Shown here piece by piece: positions 39,662 to 50,337 of a stretch of 64,000 nt of DNA. The position numbers were made by a program, and so were the translations under genes. Within the stretch, counting starts at the first letter, position 1, and every line of letters starts with the position of its first letter. The stretch covers positions 1,612,001-1,676,000 of the forward strand of contig NZ_AP023180.1 in assembly GCF_013426915.1 (NCBI RefSeq). The letters run 5' to 3'. The notes under the pieces are model-generated. The model did no database searches. It saw nothing but the letters and a program-made list of their open reading frames with translations, and was not told the DNA's origin. Source of the DNA: Paraburkholderia sp. PGU19 (GTDB taxonomy: Bacteria > Pseudomonadota > Gammaproteobacteria > Burkholderiales > Burkholderiaceae).

Positions 39662-40582
39662 TTGGACCGACTAGAAGCCATGGAAATGTTGCTGACCGCT
39701 GTGGACAGAGGAAGCCTGTCGGCGGCGGCGCGCGAACTGAAAATACCTGCCAGCACGCTCACTCGCAAAGTAGCCGACCTCGAGGAGTTGCTTGGAACCC
39801 GGTTGCTGATACGAACCACGCGAAAACTGACACTGACCGACGCGGGCATGTCATACGTCGCGGCGGCTCGACGCATCCTCGATCTCGTTCGCGAACAGGA
39901 GCGCGAGGCCACGGGCGAGTTCGCGACAGCAAAAGGAGAACTGGTCGTCACTGCGCCCGTCCAGCTCGGTCGCCTGCATATCTTGCCCGTCATCAATCAG
40001 TTCCTCGCGCAGTATCCGGACATCGCCGTTAGGCTCCTTCTCTCCGATCGAAATCTTGACCTCATCGATTCGCACGCCGATCTCGCGTTGCGGATCGGAG
40101 AACTTGCGGACAGCAGCATGATCGCCACGCGCATCGGTTCGTTGCGGCCGATCGTCTGCGCGAGTCCAGCCTTCCTTGCCAACCATGCGCCGCCGCGCGA
40201 ACCCGACGACCTCGTGAAGTATTCGTGCGTCGTGTTCAATAGCCCGTATCTGTCGCCATGGCGCTTCCGCCTTCCCACGACGAATAAAACCTATGTGCTC
40301 GGCGTGAAACCCCGGCTCGAGGTCACGACACCCGACGCCGCAGTCAGCGCCGCCGTGGACGGCGCGGGCATCACCTACGTATTCGAGCACGATGCCGACG
40401 AAGCCATCCGCAGCGGGCAGCTCGAGATCCTCCTTCCGCAGTTTGAGATCGAGCCCGTGCCCGTCCATCTGGTTCATGTGTCCAGAAATCTCATGGCCAT
40501 CAAACTGCGTCATTTCATCGACTTTGCGGCGCCCAAACTCAGGCAATCGCTGTCCAGGTTCGGCAAGCACAAGCGGCACTAG
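39662..40582 (+). CDS. LysR-family transcriptional regulator
   Basis: The 306-residue protein starts at TTG 39662 with DRLEAMEMLLTAVDRGSLSAAARELKIPASTLTRKVADLEELLG, the usual CrgA-like LysR N-terminus; ATG 39680 is an alternative. The effector domain has LVVTAPVQLGRLHILPVINQFLAQYPDI and ADLALRIGEL, typical for regulators of oxidoreductase or efflux genes. It is divergent from the DUF1993 gene across about 190 bases and probably regulates it. Confidence 0.88.
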   Translation: MDRLEAMEMLLTAVDRGSLSAAARELKIPASTLTRKVADLEELLGTRLLIRTTRKLTLTDAGMSYVAAARRILDLVREQEREATGEFATAKGELVVTAPVQLGRLHILPVINQFLAQYPDIAVRLLLSDRNLDLIDSHADLALRIGELADSSMIATRIGSLRPIVCASPAFLANHAPPREPDDLVKYSCVVFNSPYLSPWRFRLPTTNKTYVLGVKPRLEVTTPDAAVSAAVDGAGITYVFEHDADEAIRSGQLEILLPQFEIEPVPVHLVHVSRNLMAIKLRHFIDFAAPKLRQSLSRFGKHKRH

Positions 40583-40673: not shown

Positions 40674-41192
40674 TCACGACTCCTCGCTCTGGTCACCGAG
40701 TACCCGGTCATTCCGGTTCTCGATGACATCCCGCGTCGCCTTCGTCGCGCCCGGACCAGCAGCAAATCGAACGTCCCGATACGTCAGCGCCTGCCCGCCC
40801 ATCGTGCGAACTTCCACGGCCTCTACGGGGCTCCCACTCGCATGCTCCACCAATGCGATCGGCGGCTTGCCATTTGGCCTTAGCCACTTGTCTCCCCATT
40901 GCATCAGCGCGACCAGCACCGGGTATAAGTCCGCCCCCTTCGACGTCAACCTGTAACCGAACGTGTTTGCGCGTTCTGCGATCGGGAAGCGTTCGAGTAT
41001 GTCCAGTTCGATCAAACGTTCCAGCCGTGCAGTGAGGACATTGCGGGCAATACCGAGCCCGCTCTGAAATTCGTCGAAGCGCCTGCTGCCTTGCGTGCAC
41101 TCGCGAACGATCAGAAGCGTCCACCACTCGCCAACCTCATCGAGGGCGCGAGCGATCGAACAGTCCATTCCATCGAAGCGTTTTCTATACAT
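40674..41192 (-). CDS. HxlR-family transcriptional regulator (candidate repressor of the RND and MFS genes)
   Basis: The 172-residue protein is an HxlR-type winged-helix regulator: CSIARALDEVGEWWTLLIVREC, then FDEFQSGLGIARNVLTARLERLIELDILERF and YRLTSKGADLYPVLVALMQWGDKW. Cys11 lies where redox-sensing members such as YodB carry their reactive Cys, and Cys32 is a second candidate. A C-terminal extension of about 55 residues follows. The gene is divergent from the RND operon, and a GTTTCGTCACGCAAC site lies 23-37 bases upstream of its start, so autoregulation is likely. ATG 41192 gives the usual N-terminus. Confidence 0.88.
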   Translation of the reverse strand: MYRKRFDGMDCSIARALDEVGEWWTLLIVRECTQGSRRFDEFQSGLGIARNVLTARLERLIELDILERFPIAERANTFGYRLTSKGADLYPVLVALMQWGDKWLRPNGKPPIALVEHASGSPVEAVEVRTMGGQALTYRDVRFAAGPGATKATRDVIENRNDRVLGDQSEES

Positions 41193-41214
41193 GATGGAAC
41201 GTATCGTAGCCCAG

Positions 41215-41313
41215 GTTTCGTCACGCAACTTAACCAGATTGCGGGGAACAGCTTCCCGGTTTCGGCCAGTAGTGTGACGCAACGGTGTTGCCTATAGTTG
41301 CGTCACGAAACTT
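41215..41313. promoter_or_regulatory. hxlR/RND control region with putative HxlR operators
   Basis: Three related sites lie here: GTTTCGTCACGCAAC at 41215-41229, GTGACGCAAC at 41274-41283 and GTTGCGTCACGAAAC at 41297-41311. The last two make a perfect 10-bp inverted repeat (GTGACGCAAC with GTTGCGTCAC) around a 13-base spacer containing CCTATAG, whose TATAGT could be a -10 element for the RND operon. The stretch 41231-41313 is about 81% identical, without gaps, to 47392-47474 upstream of the MFS gene. The palindrome GGGAAGCTTCCC at 41332-41343 lies just downstream. Confidence 0.7.
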
Positions 41314-41466
41314 AGCCGGTCGTCGTTCAGGGGGAAGCTTCCCGGCATAGCGGCCTGGTTCTGGACTAACCCGCTTTCTTCATACCAGAAAGCAAAGATT
41401 GATCATCTAACGGCGAGCTGGACATGACTCTCTGTCATACAGCCTGTCAACATACTTAGAAATGCC

Positions 41467-42717
41467 ATGAATAACCGTATTGATCAGGCCGAGGTGGGAG
41501 TCGCCGCTCCAGCCAACCCGGCGACGTCCGGCTCCGTCCGATGGGTCGGTAAAGGTGTGGCAGCCGCTGTGATCGTCGCCGTGGCGGCGACGGCGGCTCA
41601 CATGCACTGGTCGAGTGCAGCACCCGTTGCCGTGCCGCCGCCTCCGTCGGTCGCCATCAGCGCGCCGTTGCAGCGCGATATTGAAGGCCGGCTCGGGTTC
41701 CTCGGCCAGTTCTCTGCCGTGAACCGTGTCGAATTGCGCGCTCAGGTCGGCGGCACGCTCACGCAGATCAACTTCAAGGACGGCGACATCGTGCATAAAG
41801 GCGACGTGCTCTTCGAGATCGACCCGGAACCGTATCAGATCAAGTTGAGCCAGGCGACGGCTGGACTCGAATCCGCGAATGCCCGACTGGCGCTCGCCAC
41901 GCGAGAGCTTGCCCGCGCGCAGGAACTGCAGCGTTCGGAGGCGGGAACGGTCGAGAACGTCGACCAGAAAGTCGCTGAACAACGCGCGGCTCAAGCGGCT
42001 GTCGACAACGCCAATGCTCTGGTTCGCGATGCCAGGTTCGACCTGGATCGGTGCAAGATCACAGCACCATTTACCGGGCGCATCGGCACACACCTCGTTT
42101 CGACGGGCAATCTGGTATCTGGCAGCCGGGCCGGCAGCGGCCCGACCACGCTACTCGCGACCATCGTTTCGCTGGACCCGATCTATCTGGACTTCGACAT
42201 CAGCGAAAACGACTATGCCGCCTTCCAGCACTCTCGTGAAAACCAGAAAGGACCGTTGGCAGACGCGGTGAATATTTCACCGACAGGCGACAGTAACTAT
42301 GCACGCACAGGCACGCTCAACTTTATCGACAATACACTCGACCGTTCGAGCGGAACCATCCACGCGCGCGCAACGATTCCCAATAGCGACCTGTCGTTGA
42401 CACCCGGCGGCTTCGCACGCCTGCGACTGGCAACGACCGCACCGCAACCGGCCTTGCTCGTCCCCGATGCCGCCGTACTCCAGGATCAAACCGACCACAT
42501 GGTGTACGTCGTGGGAGAAGACAACGTCGCCACCCCGCGAAAGGTCGAGGTTGGCGACCTTCGCGGCGGCCTCCGAGTCATTCGATCTGGACTTGCCCTG
42601 ACCGACCGCATCGTGATCGACGGTATTCCGGCTGTGCGTCCTGGCTCGAAGATTTCTCCACACGCCGGAACGATCCAGTTCTCAGCTGAGCACGGCGACG
42701 AAGGAGCAAGATCATGA
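41467..42717 (+). CDS. RND efflux periplasmic adaptor subunit
   Basis: The 416-residue protein has one N-terminal membrane helix (about 27-46, VGKGVAAAVIVAVAATAA) instead of a lipobox. The lipoyl-type domain follows (VNRVELRAQVGGTLTQINFKDGDIVHKGDVLFEID), then a coiled-coil hairpin (about 130-200) and the beta-barrel domain (LTPGGFARLRLATTAP). It links the pump encoded next with the outer-membrane channel. Its stop overlaps the pump's start (ATGA). No clear ribosome binding site precedes ATG 41467. Confidence 0.92.
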   Translation: MNNRIDQAEVGVAAPANPATSGSVRWVGKGVAAAVIVAVAATAAHMHWSSAAPVAVPPPPSVAISAPLQRDIEGRLGFLGQFSAVNRVELRAQVGGTLTQINFKDGDIVHKGDVLFEIDPEPYQIKLSQATAGLESANARLALATRELARAQELQRSEAGTVENVDQKVAEQRAAQAAVDNANALVRDARFDLDRCKITAPFTGRIGTHLVSTGNLVSGSRAGSGPTTLLATIVSLDPIYLDFDISENDYAAFQHSRENQKGPLADAVNISPTGDSNYARTGTLNFIDNTLDRSSGTIHARATIPNSDLSLTPGGFARLRLATTAPQPALLVPDAAVLQDQTDHMVYVVGEDNVATPRKVEVGDLRGGLRVIRSGLALTDRIVIDGIPAVRPGSKISPHAGTIQFSAEHGDEGARS

Positions 42718-45700
42718 AACTGACTCACTTCTTTATCGAGCACCCGCGCTTCGCAGCGGTGCTCAATATATTCGCTGTGCTCATCGGCCTCGCAACCATG
42801 ATGAAGCTGCCGGTGGCCCAGTATCCGAACATCGTTCCCACGACCATCCAGATCACGACCTCGTATCCGGGTGCGTCGGCGGATACGATTGCGCGCACGG
42901 TCGCAACGCCGCTCGAACAGTCCGTCAATGGCGTCGAGAATATGGATTACATTTCGAGCCAATCGACCAGCAACGGTCAGTTGACGATCACTGTGATCTT
43001 CAAGGTCGGCACAGACCCGAACACAGCGCTTCTGCTCACGCGCAGCCGCGTGGAGGACACACTGTCGCGCCTGCCCGCAGAAGTGCAATTGCAAGGCGTG
43101 CAGGTGAAAAAGACCATCCAGGCGCTGCTGCTCGGCGTTCATGTCTATTCGCCCGATGGTTCCCGTAGTCCCGAATACCTGTCGAACTACATGCTCAAGG
43201 TGCGCGATCAGATCGCGCGTTTACCGGGCGTGTCTGACTTTCAGCTGTTCGGTGAGCGGCAGTACGCGATGCGAATCTGGGTCGATCCGGACAAGGCGGC
43301 TTCGTACAACATCAGCGCCAGCGAAATACTGGCCGCGCTTCGTGCGCAGAACGCCGCCGTGTCGGCGGGTGTGCTCAATCAGCCGCCTGTATCGAACAAT
43401 GGGACGGGTGCCTACCAGATCAACATCGACGCGCTTGGCCGTCTTACCACGCCCGAACAGTTTGGCGATGTCGTCGTCAAGTCCGATACGCAGGGACGCG
43501 TGACACGCATACGCGATATCGGCCGTGTCGAGCTTGGTTCGGTCGACTACGGCTCGAAGGCTTACGCGGACCGGTATGCAGCAACGCCGTGGTTCGTGAT
43601 TGCCACGCCCGATGCGAACGTGGTACAGGTCGAGCATGACGTATGGGCCAAAATGTCCGAACTGAAGAAGAGCTTCCCGCCCGGCGTCGACTACATCAAG
43701 ATCTACGACCCGACTACGTTTGTTTCCCAGTCGATCCATGAGGTCGCCATCACCATCGGCATCGCCATTCTGCTGGTGGTCGGTGTGGTGTATCTGTTCC
43801 TGCAGAACTGGCGTGCCACGATCATCCCGGTCGTTGCGATTCCCGTGTCGCTGGTCGGAACCTTCACCGTCCTTTCGCTGTTCGGCGCGTCGATCAATAA
43901 CCTGTCGTTGTTCGGACTGGTTCTGGCCGTCGGGATCGTCGTGGACGATGCAATCGTGGTGGTCGAGAATGTCGAACGGAACATGGCGCTCGGCATGTCG
44001 CCGAAAGAGGCCGCTCATCGAACGATGAACGAGGTCTCGACGGCCATTATTGCCATCGCGCTCACGTTGTGCGCGGTGTTCGGACCCACTGCGTTGATGT
44101 CCGGCATCTCGGGGCTGTTCTTCAAGCAGTTCGCGATCACGATTGCTGCGTCCACCGTCATCTCATGTTTCGTCTCGCTGACACTGAGCCCGGCTCTGTG
44201 CGCGGTGCTTCTCAAGCCGCACGAAATGGAGAAGTCTCACGGCGGAACGACCGCTCTGGGCCGCGTCCATCATGCGATTTTCGGCCGGTTCAACTCGTCG
44301 TTTGAATGGCTGTCGTCGCGCTACGGAAAGATGACGGGCCGCGCGGTTCGCGCGACGACCGTCATGCTGATCGTCTACGCAGGTCTGATTGGCGCGACTG
44401 CCTTGCAGATGTCGAAAATGCCCACCGGTTTTATTCCGGATCAGGACATCGGCTATCAGGCTGTGATCGCGTTCCTGCCTCCGGGGTCCAGTCTCGAACG
44501 CACCGACAAGGTGATACGCGAGATCAACGACATCGTGCTCGATACGCCCGGACTCAAAGGCGTGACTCATACGTCGCCCGTGTCGGGCCTCGACGTGACG
44601 ACGGGCACGATTGCGCCCAACGTGGGGACGCTTTTCTACGGGCTGCCCTCGCTGTATGGCAAACATGTCCCCGGCGTCAATGCGGCGTCGATGCTGGTCG
44701 AACTCCGTAAGCGGGTCGCGGGTGTCAAGGATGCGGTGGTCGTGGTAATCAATCCGCCGCCCGTGCAGGGGCTGGGCGCGGCGGGTGGCTTCAAGCTGAT
44801 GCTGGAAGACCGCGGCGGACTCGGGCCGCAGGCACTCGCCGACGCGGCGCGTGCACTCGTGGCTGCAGCGAACAAGGACAAGGTGTTCGGCGGCGTATTC
44901 ACGCTTTACAACGCGGGCGCGCCATCTGTCTATGCGGACATCGACCGCCTGAAGGCAGAGAAGATCGGTCTCACGCCAGCGGATGTGTTTTCCACGATGG
45001 ATCTCTACCTTGGCTCGCAGTACGTGAACGACTTCAACTTCATGGGACGTACGTATCAGGTGCGGGTTCAGGGCGATGAAGCATTCCGGCGGACACCGGA
45101 AGACATCGGCCGACTCAAGGTGCGCAACTCGACGGGTGACATGGTGCCGATCAGCAGTGTGGCAACGTTCAGAAACACGACACAGCCGTATCGCGTACCG
45201 CGCTACAACATGTATCCCGCAGCGGAAATCATGGGTGCGGCGGGCCCTGGATACTCGTCCGGCGATGCCATTCAACACATGGAACAGCTCGCAGCGCAGG
45301 TTCTTCCAAACGGCATCACGTACGAATGGACGGATCTCGCTCATCAGCAAAAAGAGCAGACCATGTCTCCCCTCGTGATCTTCGCTGCTTCGGCGCTGTT
45401 CGTGTTCCTCGTGCTCGCTGCGCAGTATGAAAGCTGGAAGACACCTCTCGCGATCGTGCTGATCGTGCCGATGTGTCTGCTCGCAGCGGCGGTCGGTCTG
45501 AACATGCGAGGCATGCCGATCGACATCCTTGCGCAGATTGGCTTTGTGGTGCTCGTTGGACTGGCCGCCAAGAACGCGATTCTCATCGTCGAGTTCGCCA
45601 GACAGCGCCAGGAGGAAGACGGCGTCGATGCGGAGGACGCCGCCACCCATGCGGCACACGTGCGGCTGCGGCCCATCCTGATGACGTCATTCGCCTTTAT

Positions 45701-45896
45701 CGCGGGTGTGGCGCCCCTCGCCATTGCCAGCGGCGCCGGCTCGGAAATGCGGCAATCACTCGGCACGACGGTGTTCTTCGGCATGCTCGGCGTGACGCTC
45801 TTCGGGCTCGCATTCACCCCGGCGTTTTACGCCTTCGTTCGCAAGCTCGGCGTCAAGGGCGCGCTTGCCGTGCGGCAACCCGTAGTGGAGAAGTGA
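42714..45896 (+). CDS. RND multidrug efflux pump, HAE1 family
   Basis: The 1060-residue protein is a complete RND transporter with the N-terminal FFIEHPRFAAVLNIF, periplasmic pore domains, proton-relay aspartates in GIVVDDAIVVVENVERNM and the C-terminal GLAAKNAILIVEFARQRQ and LRPILMTSFAFIAGVAPLAI. It is clearly diverged from the pump at 20983-24174 (different N-terminal and loop sequences), so the two probably differ in substrates and control. It is part of a complete tripartite system under probable HxlR control. Confidence 0.95.
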   Translation: MKLTHFFIEHPRFAAVLNIFAVLIGLATMMKLPVAQYPNIVPTTIQITTSYPGASADTIARTVATPLEQSVNGVENMDYISSQSTSNGQLTITVIFKVGTDPNTALLLTRSRVEDTLSRLPAEVQLQGVQVKKTIQALLLGVHVYSPDGSRSPEYLSNYMLKVRDQIARLPGVSDFQLFGERQYAMRIWVDPDKAASYNISASEILAALRAQNAAVSAGVLNQPPVSNNGTGAYQINIDALGRLTTPEQFGDVVVKSDTQGRVTRIRDIGRVELGSVDYGSKAYADRYAATPWFVIATPDANVVQVEHDVWAKMSELKKSFPPGVDYIKIYDPTTFVSQSIHEVAITIGIAILLVVGVVYLFLQNWRATIIPVVAIPVSLVGTFTVLSLFGASINNLSLFGLVLAVGIVVDDAIVVVENVERNMALGMSPKEAAHRTMNEVSTAIIAIALTLCAVFGPTALMSGISGLFFKQFAITIAASTVISCFVSLTLSPALCAVLLKPHEMEKSHGGTTALGRVHHAIFGRFNSSFEWLSSRYGKMTGRAVRATTVMLIVYAGLIGATALQMSKMPTGFIPDQDIGYQAVIAFLPPGSSLERTDKVIREINDIVLDTPGLKGVTHTSPVSGLDVTTGTIAPNVGTLFYGLPSLYGKHVPGVNAASMLVELRKRVAGVKDAVVVVINPPPVQGLGAAGGFKLMLEDRGGLGPQALADAARALVAAANKDKVFGGVFTLYNAGAPSVYADIDRLKAEKIGLTPADVFSTMDLYLGSQYVNDFNFMGRTYQVRVQGDEAFRRTPEDIGRLKVRNSTGDMVPISSVATFRNTTQPYRVPRYNMYPAAEIMGAAGPGYSSGDAIQHMEQLAAQVLPNGITYEWTDLAHQQKEQTMSPLVIFAASALFVFLVLAAQYESWKTPLAIVLIVPMCLLAAAVGLNMRGMPIDILAQIGFVVLVGLAAKNAILIVEFARQRQEEDGVDAEDAATHAAHVRLRPILMTSFAFIAGVAPLAIASGAGSEMRQSLGTTVFFGMLGVTLFGLAFTPAFYAFVRKLGVKGALAVRQPVVEK

Positions 45897-45897
45897 A

Positions 45898-47376
45898 ATG
45901 AACGGCTTCGTATCCAGAACTTCGAAAGCGATCGTCGGTAGTCTGATCGTCAGCGCCTTGCTTGCAGCCTGTGCCGTCGGGCCAGATTATGTTGCGCCCG
46001 ACACGCAGATGACGCCGTTTCACAACGCGAAGGTCGTCGCCGACCGGCAAACGACGCTGCCCGCTCCGAAGCTCGATAGCTGGTGGACTGGGTTCAATGA
46101 TCCTGAGCTGGTCAAGGTGGTGCAACGGGCGCTCGATCAGAACCTGAGTCTCCAGGCTGCGATTGCACGGGTCGCCCAGTCGCGTGCAGCGGCTCAGGCG
46201 GCTGGCGCCCGCCTGCTTCCGACGGTCGATGCCAATGCGTCGTACACGGCAACACACCAGAGCGTGCAGAGTCCGCTTGGCACGATCGCGAGCGCGTTTC
46301 CCAACTACAGCCGCGACCAGAAGGAGTACGTCGCTGGCGCGACGGCAAGCTGGGAAATCGATCTGGCCGGTGGTCTGCGGCGCGCACACGCGGCAGCCAC
46401 CGATGAAGAGCAGGCCGCCGAGGCCGCTCAAATGGGAACGCGCGTGACAGTTGCCGCCGACGCTGCTGACGCATACCTGCAAATCAGGGGGTTGCAGGCA
46501 CAGCTCGCCGTCACACAGGATCAGGTGGATACCGATGCGCGTCTGCTGGAGCTCGTGAAAGCGCGCAAACAGGCCGGTGCATCCGACGAACGCGAGGTGG
46601 CTCAGGCCGAAGCCTTGCTGCGTCAGGCACGCGCCACCGTTCCGAGCTTGCGCGTGTCGCTCGAAGCGCAACTGAACCGGCTCGATGTGCTGATGGGCGC
46701 GCAGCCGGGGACCTATGCGGCAGAACTCGGCGCGAACGCTGGTGTCATTCCGGACGTGCCGGCCATCGGCAGCGCGGATCAGCCCGTCGACGTTCTACGG
46801 CGCCGCCCTGACATCATTGCTGCCGAACGCCACCTGGCGGCTTCCAACGAAGCGATCGGCATGGCACTCGCCGACTACTACCCGAAGATTTCGCTCGCGG
46901 GCGCACTCGGATTCGACAGCATCTCAGCCAGTCACTTCCTGAGCGCGAAGTCGTTCCAGCCAATCGGGACAGGTGCGCTGCAGTGGCGTCTGTTCGATTT
47001 CGGCAAGGTTGACGCCGAGGTCAAGAGTGCACGCGGATCGTACGCGGAGGCATTGGCGCAGTATCGGGAGGCTGCTCTCAAAGCGACCGAAGACGTCGAA
47101 GACGCCTTGATGACGCTTTCGCAAACGGAGATTCGTGCGCAGGAAATTCAACAGGAAGTGAACGCACTAACGAAGGCGCGAGACCTTTCAGAGAAAGCGT
47201 ATCGCGCGGGATCGATCACGCTCACCGATGTGCTCGACGCAGACCGGCAACTCCTGGTCTCACGCGACGATCTCGATGCAACGAAAGCAGACGCTGCCCG
47301 CGCTGCGGTGAGAACGTTCCGTTCGCTGGGTGGAGGATGGGATGCCCCGCATCAGCAGTTCGCCCAGACGAAGTGA
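45898..47376 (+). CDS. RND efflux outer-membrane channel lipoprotein (NodT/OprM type)
   Basis: The 492-residue protein has a lipoprotein signal ending LLAAC (Cys25) and the conserved AVGPDYVAPDTQM start, then two outer-membrane efflux repeats, including VLRRRPDIIAAERHLAASNEAIGMALADYYP. It starts one base after the pump's stop, completing a three-gene tripartite efflux operon at 41467-47376. Confidence 0.93.
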   Translation: MNGFVSRTSKAIVGSLIVSALLAACAVGPDYVAPDTQMTPFHNAKVVADRQTTLPAPKLDSWWTGFNDPELVKVVQRALDQNLSLQAAIARVAQSRAAAQAAGARLLPTVDANASYTATHQSVQSPLGTIASAFPNYSRDQKEYVAGATASWEIDLAGGLRRAHAAATDEEQAAEAAQMGTRVTVAADAADAYLQIRGLQAQLAVTQDQVDTDARLLELVKARKQAGASDEREVAQAEALLRQARATVPSLRVSLEAQLNRLDVLMGAQPGTYAAELGANAGVIPDVPAIGSADQPVDVLRRRPDIIAAERHLAASNEAIGMALADYYPKISLAGALGFDSISASHFLSAKSFQPIGTGALQWRLFDFGKVDAEVKSARGSYAEALAQYREAALKATEDVEDALMTLSQTEIRAQEIQQEVNALTKARDLSEKAYRAGSITLTDVLDADRQLLVSRDDLDATKADAARAAVRTFRSLGGGWDAPHQQFAQTK

Positions 47377-47391
47377 CTCCCACGCACGACT

Positions 47392-47474
47392 TAACCGGTT
47401 TATGGGGAACAGCTTCCTGCTTTCGGCCCGTAGTGCGACGCAGGCGGCTTCCCTATAGTTTCGTCACGAGACTT
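47392..47474. promoter_or_regulatory. MFS-gene control region duplicating the RND promoter block
   Basis: This block matches 41231-41313 at about 67 of 83 positions without gaps. GGGGAACAGCTTCC (47404-47417), CCTATAG and the site GTTTCGTCACGAGAC (47458-47472) sit at exactly the same spacing as in the first copy; the last is a nearly perfect palindrome. It lies between the RND channel stop and the MFS start, so the MFS gene probably has its own HxlR-controlled promoter. Confidence 0.7.
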
Positions 47475-47502
47475 TATTCGCAATCTTTCTGGAGAAGCCG
47501 AC

Positions 47503-48678
47503 ATGGATCGCCGCCTTCTAACACTCTCACTCGGTATGTTCGCGCTGGGTACTGACAGCTTTGTCTTCGCGGGCATCCTGCCTGAAATCGCGCACTCGTT
47601 TGGCGTCAGCATCGGCGCTGCCGGCCAGTTGATCAGTGTGTATGCACTGAGCTATGCGCTGCTCGGTCCGACCATCGCAGCGCTTGCTGCGAACATTCCA
47701 CGAAAGCGTCTGCTGCTCAGCGGCATCGGATTGTTTGTCATCGCCAATCTCGGCACGATCGTGGCGCCGAATCTCGGCATCGCCCTGGCCACACGCGCTT
47801 TCGCAGGTCTTGGCGCAGCGATGTTCTCGCCGACTGCCAGCGGAACAGGTGCGTCACTCGTCCCGCCAGAGCGTCGCGGGTACGCGTTGTCCATCATCGT
47901 CGCGGGATTGACGACCGCTACCGCGCTGGGCTCGCCCATCGGTGCCGTGATCGGCGGACTCGCAAGCTGGCACTGGACGCTGGTGCTCGTTGCCGCGCTT
48001 GGTGCAGCCGCGTTCGCCGGTATTCTCGCGTTCCTGCCTGAGGTGCCGCTGCCGCCCGCCATCTCGCTGCGCGAACGCCTGTCGCCCCTCACCGATTCCC
48101 GCGTCGGACTCACACTCACGACGACGGTGCTTGCCCAGATCGGCACATTCATCATCTTCAGCTACTTCTCCGTTGTGTTCGATCGTGCGATCGGCCACAG
48201 CGCCCCCGTGCTGGGTGGATTGCTCGTGCTATGGGGACTGGCTGGAACCTTCTCGAATCTGCTGACGGGACGAATCCTCGACAAGATCGGTTCGCACAAA
48301 GTCGTTCTGATCAAACTCTCTATCGTTGCAATCGTCATCCTCACGATGCCGATCACGGGCGCACATCTTTGGAGTGCAGCGATCGCGGTGACGATCTGGG
48401 GTGCCTGTGCATGGGGTGTGCTGGTGCCGCAACAGTTCCGCCTCGCGAGCCTGAATCCGCCGATGACGGCTGTGCTGGTCGGTCTCAACACTTCAGCGAC
48501 CTATGTAGGTGTGTCCATTGCTGGGGCTCTCGGTGCTGCTGTGATCCCGGTCATCGGCAGCCATAACCTGGGGTACCTCTCCAGCATTCCCGTGGTCATC
48601 GCGATCCTTGTCTCCGGGCTCGCGACGCGTCGCATCGCATCGTTTGCAAAAACAGCAAAAGGCGCCGTAGCGGCTTGA
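47503..48678 (+). CDS. MFS exporter, DHA1 (AraJ/YdhP-like) family
   Basis: The 391-residue protein has 12 predicted membrane helices and the family start LTLSLGMFALGTDSFVFAGILPEIA. The cytoplasmic loop LAANIPRKRLLL fits the MFS motif A region, and SLVPPERRGYALSI follows helix 4. Members export drugs, sugars or amino-acid derivatives by proton antiport. GGAG lies eight bases before the ATG. Its promoter duplicates that of the RND operon, so it is likely co-induced with it. Confidence 0.9.
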   Translation: MDRRLLTLSLGMFALGTDSFVFAGILPEIAHSFGVSIGAAGQLISVYALSYALLGPTIAALAANIPRKRLLLSGIGLFVIANLGTIVAPNLGIALATRAFAGLGAAMFSPTASGTGASLVPPERRGYALSIIVAGLTTATALGSPIGAVIGGLASWHWTLVLVAALGAAAFAGILAFLPEVPLPPAISLRERLSPLTDSRVGLTLTTTVLAQIGTFIIFSYFSVVFDRAIGHSAPVLGGLLVLWGLAGTFSNLLTGRILDKIGSHKVVLIKLSIVAIVILTMPITGAHLWSAAIAVTIWGACAWGVLVPQQFRLASLNPPMTAVLVGLNTSATYVGVSIAGALGAAVIPVIGSHNLGYLSSIPVVIAILVSGLATRRIASFAKTAKGAVAA

Positions 48679-48707
48679 GTTTCAATCCCTTTACGAGGAA
48701 AAAAGCA

Positions 48708-49520
48708 ATGTCCAATGCAAGCACATTTCGTCAGTTGCACGACAATTCGATCCCGCTCCGCTTGCCGAATGTCTGGGATGCCGGTAGTGCACGTCTCGTT
48801 GAGGCGTTGGGTGCACCCGCAATCGCTACGACAAGCGCCGGCTTTGCGTGGGCATTGGGATATCCAGACGGCCGCATACTCCCTTTCGATGAGGTGATCG
48901 CTTCAGTTCGGCGTATCGTCCGCGTGCTGAACGTGCCCTTGTCGGTCGATATCGAGAATGGCTATTCCGACAATCCGAAGACCGTTGCAGACCATGTCAT
49001 GCGACTGGTGGATCTCGGCATCGCCGGCATCAATATCGAAGATGGCTCAGACCCGGCATCGCTTCTCGCCTTGAAGATCGAGGCGATCAGGGATGCGCTT
49101 GTGAAGTCGGGTTCGGATCTCTTCGTCAACGCGCGCTCCGACGTCTTTCTTGCAGGCCTCGCTGAAAAATCGAAGCAGCCGGAAGAGTCGATTGCTCGCG
49201 GCAATCTGTATGCATCAGCCGGTGCGGACGGTCTTTTCCTTCCGGCTCTCGTGCAGTCGTCGGATATCGAGACGATTGCCGGCGCAACCCGACTGCCTCT
49301 TAACGTCATGGCTGTACCAGGGCTGGCCGACGCAGCGACGCTCGGAAAGCTGGGCGTGCGGCGGTTAAGTGCGGGTAGCGGCATCTCGCAAGTGGTGTTG
49401 GGCAAAGCGAAGGCCATCGCGCAAAACTTTCTGGAGGGTGGTCGTTCTGAAGCGCTCGACAGCAATCCCTTGCCGTACTCCGAGATCCAGAACCTTTTCA
49501 CCGGACTAACGAATCCGTGA
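48708..49520 (+). CDS. Isocitrate lyase/PEP mutase family protein
   Basis: The 270-residue protein is a (beta/alpha)8-barrel of the isocitrate lyase/phosphoenolpyruvate mutase superfamily: LRLPNVWDAGSARLVEALGAPAIATTSAG at the start, the metal-binding region SVDIENGYSDNP, GINIEDGS and NARSDVFL. Members cleave or form C-C or C-P bonds in small carboxylic acids; the actual substrate is unknown. GAGGAAAA precedes ATG 48708. It lies 29 bases after the MFS gene, so it probably shares its transcript. Confidence 0.87.
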   Translation: MSNASTFRQLHDNSIPLRLPNVWDAGSARLVEALGAPAIATTSAGFAWALGYPDGRILPFDEVIASVRRIVRVLNVPLSVDIENGYSDNPKTVADHVMRLVDLGIAGINIEDGSDPASLLALKIEAIRDALVKSGSDLFVNARSDVFLAGLAEKSKQPEESIARGNLYASAGADGLFLPALVQSSDIETIAGATRLPLNVMAVPGLADAATLGKLGVRRLSAGSGISQVVLGKAKAIAQNFLEGGRSEALDSNPLPYSEIQNLFTGLTNP

Positions 49521-49599
49521 GCGGCAGACGCATCGCGAAGCTTCGATGGTTGACGTCCGCTCAAACTTTCCTCACCACTCAACACCCAAGGAGATTTAT

Positions 49600-50337
49600 A
49601 TGAACCTTACAGGCAAACGCGCTCTCGTCACCGGGGCGAGTCGAGGCATCGGCGCTGCAATCGCGAAGGCTTTAGCAGCCGCTGGCGCAGATGTGGCGAT
49701 CACATATGAAAAGTCCACCGAGCAGGCCGACAGCGTCGTGAAGGCGATCGAAGCTGAGGGCCGGCGTAGTATCGCAATCCAGGCGGATAGCGCGGATGCA
49801 TCGGCCGTTCAGGCGTCTGTACAGAAGACGGTCGAAGCATTGGGTGGGCTCGATATTCTGGTGAACAACGCCGGCATTCTCCGGATGGGCGATGTAAAGG
49901 ATATTTCCGTCGAAGACATCGACGCGACGCTCAACGTCAATGTGCGTGCGCCGATCGTGGCCGCAAAAGCCGCAATCCCTCACTTGGGGACAGGAGGGCG
50001 CATCATTTCGATCGGTAGTTACTTTGCCGACCGCGTCCCGGCGTCGATGCTCGGTGTCTATGCTGGCTCCAAGTCCGCTCTCGTTGCGTTCACACAGGGC
50101 CTGGCGCGAGAACTCGGCACGCAAGGCATTACGGCAAATCTCGTCCAGCCTGGTTCCATCAACACAGATATGAATCCCGTCGACGGGCCGTTCGCGTCGA
50201 CGATGAAATCGCTCACGGCCACAGGAGACTACGGCACAGGCGAAGACATAGCACAAGCAGTGGTCTTCCTCGCGAGCGCCAGCGCCAGTTACATCACCGG
50301 CGCGACGCTCACCGTCGACGGTGGCGCCAACGCCTAA
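49600..50337 (+). CDS. Short-chain dehydrogenase/reductase (FabG-like)
   Basis: The 245-residue protein is a classical SDR. The cofactor loop TGASRGIG is near residue 12, NNAG near 89, the catalytic Ser lies in ISIGSYFADR and the Tyr-Lys pair in YAGSKSALVAF. The C-terminus has GATLTVDGGANA. It reduces or oxidises a carbonyl with NAD(P)(H). AAGGAG lies six bases before ATG 49600. With the preceding three genes it completes a probable efflux-plus-detoxification gene set. Confidence 0.92.
   Translation: MNLTGKRALVTGASRGIGAAIAKALAAAGADVAITYEKSTEQADSVVKAIEAEGRRSIAIQADSADASAVQASVQKTVEALGGLDILVNNAGILRMGDVKDISVEDIDATLNVNVRAPIVAAKAAIPHLGTGGRIISIGSYFADRVPASMLGVYAGSKSALVAFTQGLARELGTQGITANLVQPGSINTDMNPVDGPFASTMKSLTATGDYGTGEDIAQAVVFLASASASYITGATLTVDGGANA

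What the first reader, a model, noticed from the sequence alone, without database searches (positions are those of the whole stretch)
41215..47474. Duplicated promoter blocks suggest one HxlR regulator controls an RND operon and an MFS gene
83 bp at 41231-41313 match 47392-47474 at about 81% with no gaps, far beyond chance for non-coding DNA. Both keep GGGGAACAGCTTCC, CCTATAG and a 15-bp near-palindrome (GTTGCGTCACGAAAC and GTTTCGTCACGAGAC) at identical spacing, and a third copy (GTTTCGTCACGCAAC, 41215-41229) lies just before hxlR itself. The MFS gene, PEP-mutase-like enzyme and SDR would then be a second transcript under the same control. The HxlR protein carries Cys11 at a position used for redox sensing in YodB-type regulators.
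Basis: partly seen in the sequence, partly recalled or inferred. Interest (0 to 1): 0.75.

Follow-up and report, generated by a model that had tools for sequence, protein, structure and literature searches.

The report
Efflux operon captured by neighbour's promoter
A soil bacterium carries two copies of one promoter, each with a likely binding site for the same HxlR-type repressor, and comparison with relatives indicates that a drug-efflux operon which once had its own repressor came under the neighbour's control, and was lost again in one species by recombination between the two promoter copies.

Summary
The duplicated blocks are real (70/86 identical, ungapped); a search of the 11.2-Mb genome finds only these two. 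Each carries a palindrome, AGTT-N9-AACT, running out of a TATAGT -10 box; a third copy lies before hxlR. With at most one mismatch to AGTTKCRTSAYGMAACT these three are the only sites in the genome. The palindrome sits beside hxlR in 48 of 51 related loci, so it is very probably the HxlR operator; binding is untested.

Relatives give a series. In L076/L081 the blocks stand before MFS and the PEP-mutase-like gene, and the RND operon has its own divergent tetR. In the window and 12 relatives block 1 stands before RND and block 2 before MFS-PEPM, tetR is gone from the locus, and the window keeps a decayed remnant of the old RND promoter. In Caballeronia calidae RND is absent, the species nests among RND carriers (AU p = 0.001), and its single block is a chimera: excision between the repeats.

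A second shared element, GGGGAACAG, co-occurs with the neighbouring LysR gene across 299 genomes, suggesting two inputs. Cys11 is present in all 92 HxlR relatives examined, so it is no specific evidence for redox sensing.

The parts
39662..40582 (+). LysR-type regulator gene, convergent with hxlR; candidate ligand of the GGGGAACAG element
   Evidence: Pfam LysR; co-occurrence with the element over 299 family genomes
40674..41192 (-). hxlR, 172 aa, HxlR/DUF24 winged-helix regulator; cysteines 11 and 32 only
   Evidence: PF01638 69.6 bits; matches to solved chains 4gcv, 2f2e, YodB, HxlR, YybR; Cys
41213..41231 (.). operator O1 (probable autoregulation of hxlR)
   Evidence: palindrome about 20 nt from the hxlR start codon; 48 of 51 loci have one within 60 nt
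41228..41313 (+). promoter block 1 (now before the RND operon)
41243..41256 (+). GGGGAACAGCTTCC element, possible site of a second regulator (LysR?)
   Evidence: exact only in the two blocks of this genome; co-occurs with LysR
41268..41284 (.). operator-like site Om (6 of 8 fixed letters), 28 bp before O2, covers the -35 position
41293..41298 (+). -10 box TATAGT of the RND promoter, runs into O2
   Evidence: sequence; present in 13 of 13 RND blocks
41295..41313 (.). operator O2 of block 1 (8 of 8 fixed letters)
41359..41412 (+). decayed remnant of a former tetR-type RND promoter; palindrome 41373-41393
   Evidence: local alignment score 48 to the L081 tetR|RND promoter, shuffles 15.3 +/- 2.1, max 24
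41467..42717 (+). RND periplasmic adaptor
   Evidence: TIGR01730
42714..45896 (+). RND permease (AcrB type)
   Evidence: PF00873, TIGR00915
45898..47376 (+). outer membrane efflux channel
   Evidence: TIGR01845
47389..47474 (+). promoter block 2 (before MFS-PEPM-SDR)
47404..47417 (+). GGGGAACAGCTTCC element of block 2
   Evidence: mean pairwise identity 0.95 in 13 species
47456..47474 (.). operator O2 of block 2 (7 of 8 fixed letters), overlaps -10 TATAGT 47454-47459
47503..48678 (+). MFS exporter
   Evidence: PF07690
48708..49520 (+). PEP-mutase-like enzyme (PEPM)
   Evidence: PF13714
49603..50337 (+). SDR oxidoreductase
   Evidence: PF13561

Best explanation
HxlR is a local repressor. It binds the palindrome AGTT-N9-AACT beside its own gene (autoregulation) and the palindrome that overlaps the -10 box in each of the two promoter blocks, so one inducer signal releases both the RND operon (block 1) and MFS-PEPM-SDR (block 2). 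The arrangement is a captured promoter. In relatives L076 and L081 block 1 stands before MFS, a second block before PEPM, and the RND operon has its own TetR-type gene. In the lineage of the window MFS came to stand behind block 2, tetR was lost from the locus and block 1 was fused to the RND leader. The blocks are also recombination substrates: in Caballeronia calidae RND has been excised between them. Shown: sequence conservation, operator distribution, the gene orders, the promoter remnant, the chimeric junction. Inferred: binding, repression, the inducer, and the order of the rearrangements.
For: Operator beside hxlR in 48 of 51 loci, shuffles mean 0.7, max 3. AGTTKCRTSAYGMAACT with up to 1 mismatch occurs only at the three sites here in 11.2 Mb; in 15 relatives exact 16-mer matches lie beside hxlR or in the MFS block except five places not followed up, and one genome has none. 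O2 kept in 13 of 13 RND blocks (8/8) and 13 of 13 MFS blocks (7-8/8); O1 and Om kept only in block 1. -10+O2 mean identity 0.98 against 0.66-0.70 in the leader. tetR beside RND in L081, L076 (79%) and L058 (70%); no tetR match at E <= 1e-20 above 48% identity in eight genomes, seven of them carriers of the derived order. Remnant of the old RND promoter. Block before PEPM in L076, L077 and L081, scores 56, 47 and 36, shuffle maxima 28, 23 and 24. C. calidae: best RND match 49% against 94% in its close relative C. pedi, nested among carriers (AU p = 0.00105), chimeric block.
Against: No DNA-binding or expression data. The generic sigma-70 scan found no promoter in either stretch: the -35 (TAGTGT / TAGTGC) is poor, so the promoters may need an activator. 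B. subtilis HxlR is an activator (titles seen), so repression is inferred from operator position only. The MFS-block operator of the window has AGACT where AAACT or CAACT is usual. Three of 51 loci lack the operator. L077 and L049 carry an RND operon without this tetR in the fetched stretch, and the leader of L077 does not match the window's above shuffles, so tetR control is shown for one sister lineage only. L058 as an intermediate is one genome with a decayed hxlR, and could be an independent rearrangement.
Confidence: 0.78

Rival explanations
1. The operator in one of the two blocks is a non-functional leftover of a duplication, so only one transcript responds to HxlR.
For: O1 and Om have decayed in the MFS block in the 13 species scored, showing that parts of a copied block do decay; the MFS-block O2 of the window departs from the palindrome.
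Against: O2 and GGGGAACAG are retained in both blocks of 13 species while neighbouring bases drift. Blocks within a genome are 0.75 identical on average against 0.89 and 0.83 between orthologous blocks, so they are not homogenised but held separately.
Confidence: 0.1
2. The shared regulator of both blocks is mainly the neighbouring LysR protein, binding GGGGAACAGCTTCC; HxlR acts mainly on its own gene.
For: Element exact only in the two blocks of this genome; in 299 family genomes the exact pattern is present in 9, all among the 10 with a LysR orthologue of 76% or more, the tenth having a one-mismatch form; in block 2 it is the best conserved segment; weak -35 boxes.
Against: The carriers are one clade and LysR is adjacent to hxlR in 9 of 10, so co-inheritance is confounded; no copy (up to 1 mismatch) lies before the lysR gene itself; 34 of 51 hxlR loci lack the element, most of them with the operator.
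Confidence: 0.2
3. The direct repeats are a recombination or mobile-element signature with no regulatory meaning.
For: Recombination between them very probably happened in C. calidae.
Against: Two copies only in the genome; the conserved positions are promoter-like and operator positions; the same operator occurs in hxlR loci with a single block.
Confidence: 0.03
4. C. calidae shows the state before RND entered, not a loss.
For: Its gene order hxlR|MFS-PEPM resembles the order hxlR|MFS of 23 other loci; many columns where it is RND type on the left are also the outgroup state.
Against: AU test p = 0.00105 against placing it outside the 13 RND carriers (I had seen a quick tree before naming the group); its block shares block-2 states that at least five of six outgroup blocks lack at columns 81, 86, 92 and 95.
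Confidence: 0.05

Closest known systems
HxlR/DUF24 regulators (B. subtilis HxlR, YodB, HypR; Campylobacter RrpA/RrpB)
   Same: PF01638 family, N-terminal Cys11, conserved palindrome beside own gene (negative autoregulation reported for RrpB, passages of PMC4508579)
   Different: Predicted targets are an RND operon and MFS-PEPM-SDR; no Lys13, so the Cys11-Lys13 formaldehyde crosslink of HxlR (passages of PMC7835342) is not available; second Cys is at 32
TetR|RND local repressor pairs (AcrR, MtrR type)
   Same: The RND operons of L076, L081 and L058 have a divergent tetR gene with a palindrome at the promoter
   Different: In the window locus the tetR gene is absent and the promoter replaced. 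The tetR gene meets no NCBIfam cut-off, so AcrR/MtrR is resemblance only
Promoter capture / promoter propagation / regulatory rewiring
   Same: A gene is fused to a neighbouring promoter through deletion or tandem duplication (passages of PMC11111574; Matus-Garcia 2012 seen only as its reference)
   Different: Here a natural series across species, with a remnant of the replaced promoter and a later excision by recombination
LysR-controlled RND operons (MexT, CeoR, BpeT; recalled, not tested)
   Same: A LysR gene lies near an RND operon
   Different: This LysR is closest to the YafC and AaeR models, below their cut-offs, and its role here is only a co-occurrence inference

Membership tests
HxlR/DUF24 (PF01638) regulator | HxlR winged-helix domain above the gathering score | tested here: met
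   69.6 bits, cut-off 20.8
HxlR/DUF24 (PF01638) regulator | conserved N-terminal cysteine | tested here: met
   Cys11, present in 92 of 92 relatives examined
HxlR/DUF24 (PF01638) regulator | binds a palindrome at its own promoter | not testable with these tools
   palindrome conserved in 48 of 51 loci, binding not tested
Formaldehyde-sensing HxlR subtype | Cys11 and Lys13 on helix 1 | tested here: not met
   position 13 is Ile here and not Lys in any of 92 relatives
YodB/HypR two-cysteine redox switch | second cysteine able to form an intersubunit disulfide | tested here: inconclusive
   only Cys11 and Cys32 present; the place of the second Cys of YodB and HypR is recalled and differs; geometry not modelled (not accepted)
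AcrB-type RND tripartite pump | adaptor, AcrB-type permease and outer channel encoded together | tested here: met
Promoter capture | gene behind a promoter homologous to that of another gene, with trace of its former promoter | tested here: met

The most novel reading that the evidence does not exclude
The two promoter blocks work as exchange sites of a small modular regulon: recombination between similar, doubly controlled promoters (HxlR repressor plus LysR activator) shuffles efflux and metabolic genes in and out of one control unit, moving MFS, capturing RND from TetR and excising RND again, while co-regulation is kept throughout.
Probability: 0.35. Interest if true: 0.75.

Novelty: new variant of a known kind. 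Interest (0 to 1): 0.6.

Why it matters
It gives a natural case of how an efflux operon changes its regulator, with an order like the earlier one, a possible intermediate, the present state and a later excision all visible in living species, and it yields a precise candidate operator that makes the HxlR regulon of this clade testable by one gel shift. It also predicts that two pumps of different classes and a metabolic enzyme answer one signal, which would help to find the unknown substrate.

Tried and rejected
Rejected: a genome-wide repeat family (block found twice only); a known RNA element (no Rfam match at gathering scores over 41100-47600); a notable RNA structure in the RND leader (z = -0.11); homogenisation of the two blocks; GGGGAACAG as an HxlR site (absent from 34 of 51 hxlR loci); Cys11 as evidence for a redox regulator; my first idea that the block was copied when RND was inserted, because L076, L077 and L081 already have a second block before PEPM. 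Led nowhere: sigma-70 scans; literature: HxlR with RND efflux and Burkholderia, and HxlR family with binding motif and MFS transporter, both 0 papers; HxlR alone 84 papers, 40 listed; HxlR with Burkholderia 15 papers; HxlR with efflux pump 16 papers, 15 listed; of these I saw titles and the starts of abstracts, none on this subject. One search gave no paper with the HxlR term among the 8 listed. A first operator scoring was off by one base and was redone. In one search the MFS blocks of the 12 relatives were located by the string CTATAGTTTCGTCA, which includes half of O2; each locus had exactly one hit and none was missed, so this does not create the conservation.
Full report
THE OBSERVATION. 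Positions 41231-41313 and 47392-47474 are identical at 67 of 83 ungapped bases; in 60 shuffles of the second intergenic stretch the best 83-mer reached at most 40. The repeat extends to 86 nt (70 of 86). A DNA search of the window's own assembly (11.2 Mb, 5 contigs) with the block finds these two places only. The motif GTTKCGTCACGMRAC occurs exactly at the three claimed places and nowhere else.

THE GENES. hxlR (40674-41192, minus) is a PF01638 protein. Divergent to it are the genes of a complete RND tripartite pump (41467-47376), then MFS, a PEP-mutase-like enzyme (PEPM) and an SDR (47503-50337). A LysR gene (39662-40582) is convergent with hxlR.

THE OPERATOR. In the 51 loci L059-L109, 48 have a palindrome AGTT-N9-AACT with at most one mismatch in its eight fixed letters starting within 60 nt of the hxlR start codon; 200 rounds of shuffling gave a mean of 0.7 and a maximum of 3. 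L070, L093 and L109 lack it. In the more distant loci L110-L136 it is 9 of 27. In L097 (HxlR 60% identical) the two sites read AAGTTGCGTCACGCAACTT and CAGTTGCGTCACGCAACTT. In the window's genome AGTTKCRTSAYGMAACT with up to one mismatch is found at 41214, 41296 and 47457 only; with two mismatches there are 14 further places. In 15 relatives, exact matches to a 16-mer form lie beside an hxlR or in the MFS block, except for four places in G209 and one in G016 that I did not follow up; one genome (G061) has none. This makes the palindrome the operator of this HxlR with high probability; no binding was tested.

PROMOTER ARCHITECTURE. In whole loci L059-L109, neighbouring operators within 120 bp form 60 pairs; 20 are exactly 28 bp apart and 11 are 82 bp apart. 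Seven of the 20 come from two related loci (L085, L087). At a 28-bp spacing the left operator lies over the -35 position and the right one starts inside the -10 (TATAGT in the window), with a 17-bp spacer. The window's RND block has O1 (7 of 8 letters), Om (6 of 8, 41268-41284) and O2 (8 of 8). In 13 species (window, L059-L062, L064-L069, L071, L080) the RND block keeps O1 at 7-8, Om at 6-7 and O2 at 8, while the MFS block keeps O2 (7-8) but has lost O1 (3-5) and Om (3-4) (the window's O1 place, 4 of 8). So the RND promoter may be held more tightly than the MFS promoter (inference). Generic sigma-70 scans find nothing in either stretch, because the -35 is poor; an activator may be needed.

CONSERVATION. 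In the 13 RND blocks -10+O2 has mean pairwise identity 0.98 and O1 0.92, against 0.70 and 0.66 in the two parts of the leader (these identities leave out L067 and L068, whose leaders are short). In the 13 MFS blocks GGGGAACAGCTTCC has 0.95 and -10+O2 0.88, against 0.56 for the O1 remnant and 0.72 for the leader. Blocks of one genome are on average 0.75 identical; orthologous RND blocks 0.89 and MFS blocks 0.83. The two blocks are kept apart, and each appears constrained.

THE NATURAL SERIES. (1) Of the 51 loci, 24 have hxlR directly divergent to MFS, 12 have it divergent to the RND adaptor, and 15 have another neighbour. (2) L076 and L081 have hxlR|MFS, then a tetR gene divergent to the RND operon (L081:8022-8621; the L076 copy is 79% identical; called TetR from NCBIfam matches below cut-off), then PEPM. 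PEPM there has its own copy of the block: scores 56 (L076) and 36 (L081), also 47 in L077, against maxima of 28, 24 and 23 in 300 shuffles; no such block within 300 nt of PEPM in L049, L073 or L079. (3) L058 has block 1, tetR (70%), RND, outer channel, block 2, a remnant of MFS (residues 307-353, E = 4e-6) and PEPM; its hxlR is decayed. (4) The window and 12 relatives have block 1 - RND - block 2 - MFS - PEPM; an SDR orthologue of full length follows in the window and 8 of these 12 in the stretches held. The leader of the window's RND operon (41359-41412) aligns with the tetR|RND promoter of L081 (score 48; 1000 shuffles 15.3 +/- 2.1, maximum 24), L058 (34, maximum 27) and L076 (32, maximum 27), but not above shuffles with the RND leader of L077 (23, maximum 29). 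The old TTGACA is gone. The palindrome of that promoter survives in changed form (41373-41393; 7 of 7 pairs in five species, 5-6 in four) and is missing in L066-L069. No close tetR match was found in eight genomes, seven of them with the derived order (best 48% identity at E <= 1e-20). L077 and L049 carry RND without this tetR in the stretch held. The path from (2) to (4) is inferred; unequal exchange between the blocks followed by deletions would do it.

THE REVERSAL. Caballeronia calidae (L063) has hxlR|MFS-PEPM-SDR. Its best RND match is 49% identical, against 94% in its close relative C. pedi. A tree of HxlR, LysR, MFS, PEPM and SDR puts it inside the RND carriers (support 99/99 for the five Caballeronia L063, L066-L069, and 99/96 for three), and holding the 13 RND carriers together without it is rejected (AU p = 0.00105; a quick tree had been seen before). 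Its single block is a chimera: of 11 columns that separate all four nearest RND blocks from all four MFS blocks, the first 3 are RND type and the other 8 MFS type. With a 3-of-4 rule and flanks, 11 of 11 columns on the left are RND type and 13 of 14 on the right MFS type; at columns 81, 86, 92 and 95 it shares MFS-block states that at least five of six outgroup blocks lack. The left columns are weaker evidence, since several lie in O1, which the MFS blocks lack, or show the outgroup state. The simplest reading is deletion of about 6 kb between the repeats. It is a draft assembly, so a missing contig is not fully excluded.

A SECOND INPUT. GGGGAACAG with TATAGT 38-44 nt downstream occurs in 9 of 299 family genomes. 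A LysR orthologue of 76% or more occurs in 10 of 299: the same nine and G095, whose element has one mismatch in GGGGAACAG. In the loci L059-L109 the element (12 or more of 14 letters) is present in 17: the 16 with this LysR adjacent, and L077, whose genome holds it (83%) outside the locus. In G244 the LysR is some 200 kb from the blocks. This suggests that LysR binds the element in both blocks. Against: one clade, usually adjacent genes, and no element before lysR in the window's genome.

THE SENSOR. The only cysteines are 11 and 32. Cys11 is present in 92 of 92 relatives examined, so it cannot single out a redox sensor; Cys32 is present in 29 of 29 relatives at 70% or more, 20 of 37 at 50-70% and 1 of 26 below 50%. 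The decayed HxlR of L058, not among these, has Ser at 11. Lys13, needed for formaldehyde sensing by B. subtilis HxlR (passages of PMC7835342), is absent. The inducer is unknown; a thiol switch through Cys11 and Cys32 is possible but untested.

KNOWN OR NEW. HxlR regulators, RND pumps, TetR|RND pairs and promoter capture are known kinds (for the last, passages of PMC11111574). I found no paper on an HxlR regulator of an RND operon in the searches; most subscription papers are not in that library. I file it as a new variant of a known kind.

Noticed in passing
41243-41256 and 47404-47417: GGGGAACAGCTTCC in both blocks tracks a neighbouring LysR orthologue across 299 genomes (9 of the 10 LysR carriers have the exact pattern, the tenth a one-mismatch form, no other genome has it)
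   Followed up: yes
loci L059-L109: HxlR operators recur as tandem pairs exactly 28 bp apart (20 of 60 pairs), which puts a 17-bp spacer promoter between them
   Followed up: partly
41373-41393: GCTTTCTTCATACCAGAAAGC, counterpart of the tetR|RND palindrome of L081, changed symmetrically in both arms; missing in L066-L069
   Followed up: partly
L085 and L087 (Caenimonas soli): hxlR is directly divergent to a PEPM relative (50-51%) with an operator pair; two such clusters in the assembly
   Followed up: partly
L088, L090, L092 (Methylobacterium and kin): hxlR|MFS with RND permease relatives (75-76%) on the other side of hxlR; PEPM relatives (42%) in L088 and L090 and an SDR relative (69%) in L090. 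The operator scan found sites only at hxlR|MFS there
   Followed up: partly
hxlR residue 32: Cys32 marks this subfamily: 29 of 29 relatives at 70% identity or more, 1 of 26 below 50%
   Followed up: partly
41330-41345: palindrome-like GGGGGAAGCTTCCCGG in the RND leader of the window, poorly conserved in relatives
   Followed up: no
L058 (G244): decayed hxlR (Ser at position 11) and an MFS remnant; the genome has another hxlR|MFS locus (L053)
   Followed up: partly
G112 hxlR (L080), L059 MFS: the hxlR match of G112 has one internal stop; the MFS match of L059 covers only about half of the protein
   Followed up: no
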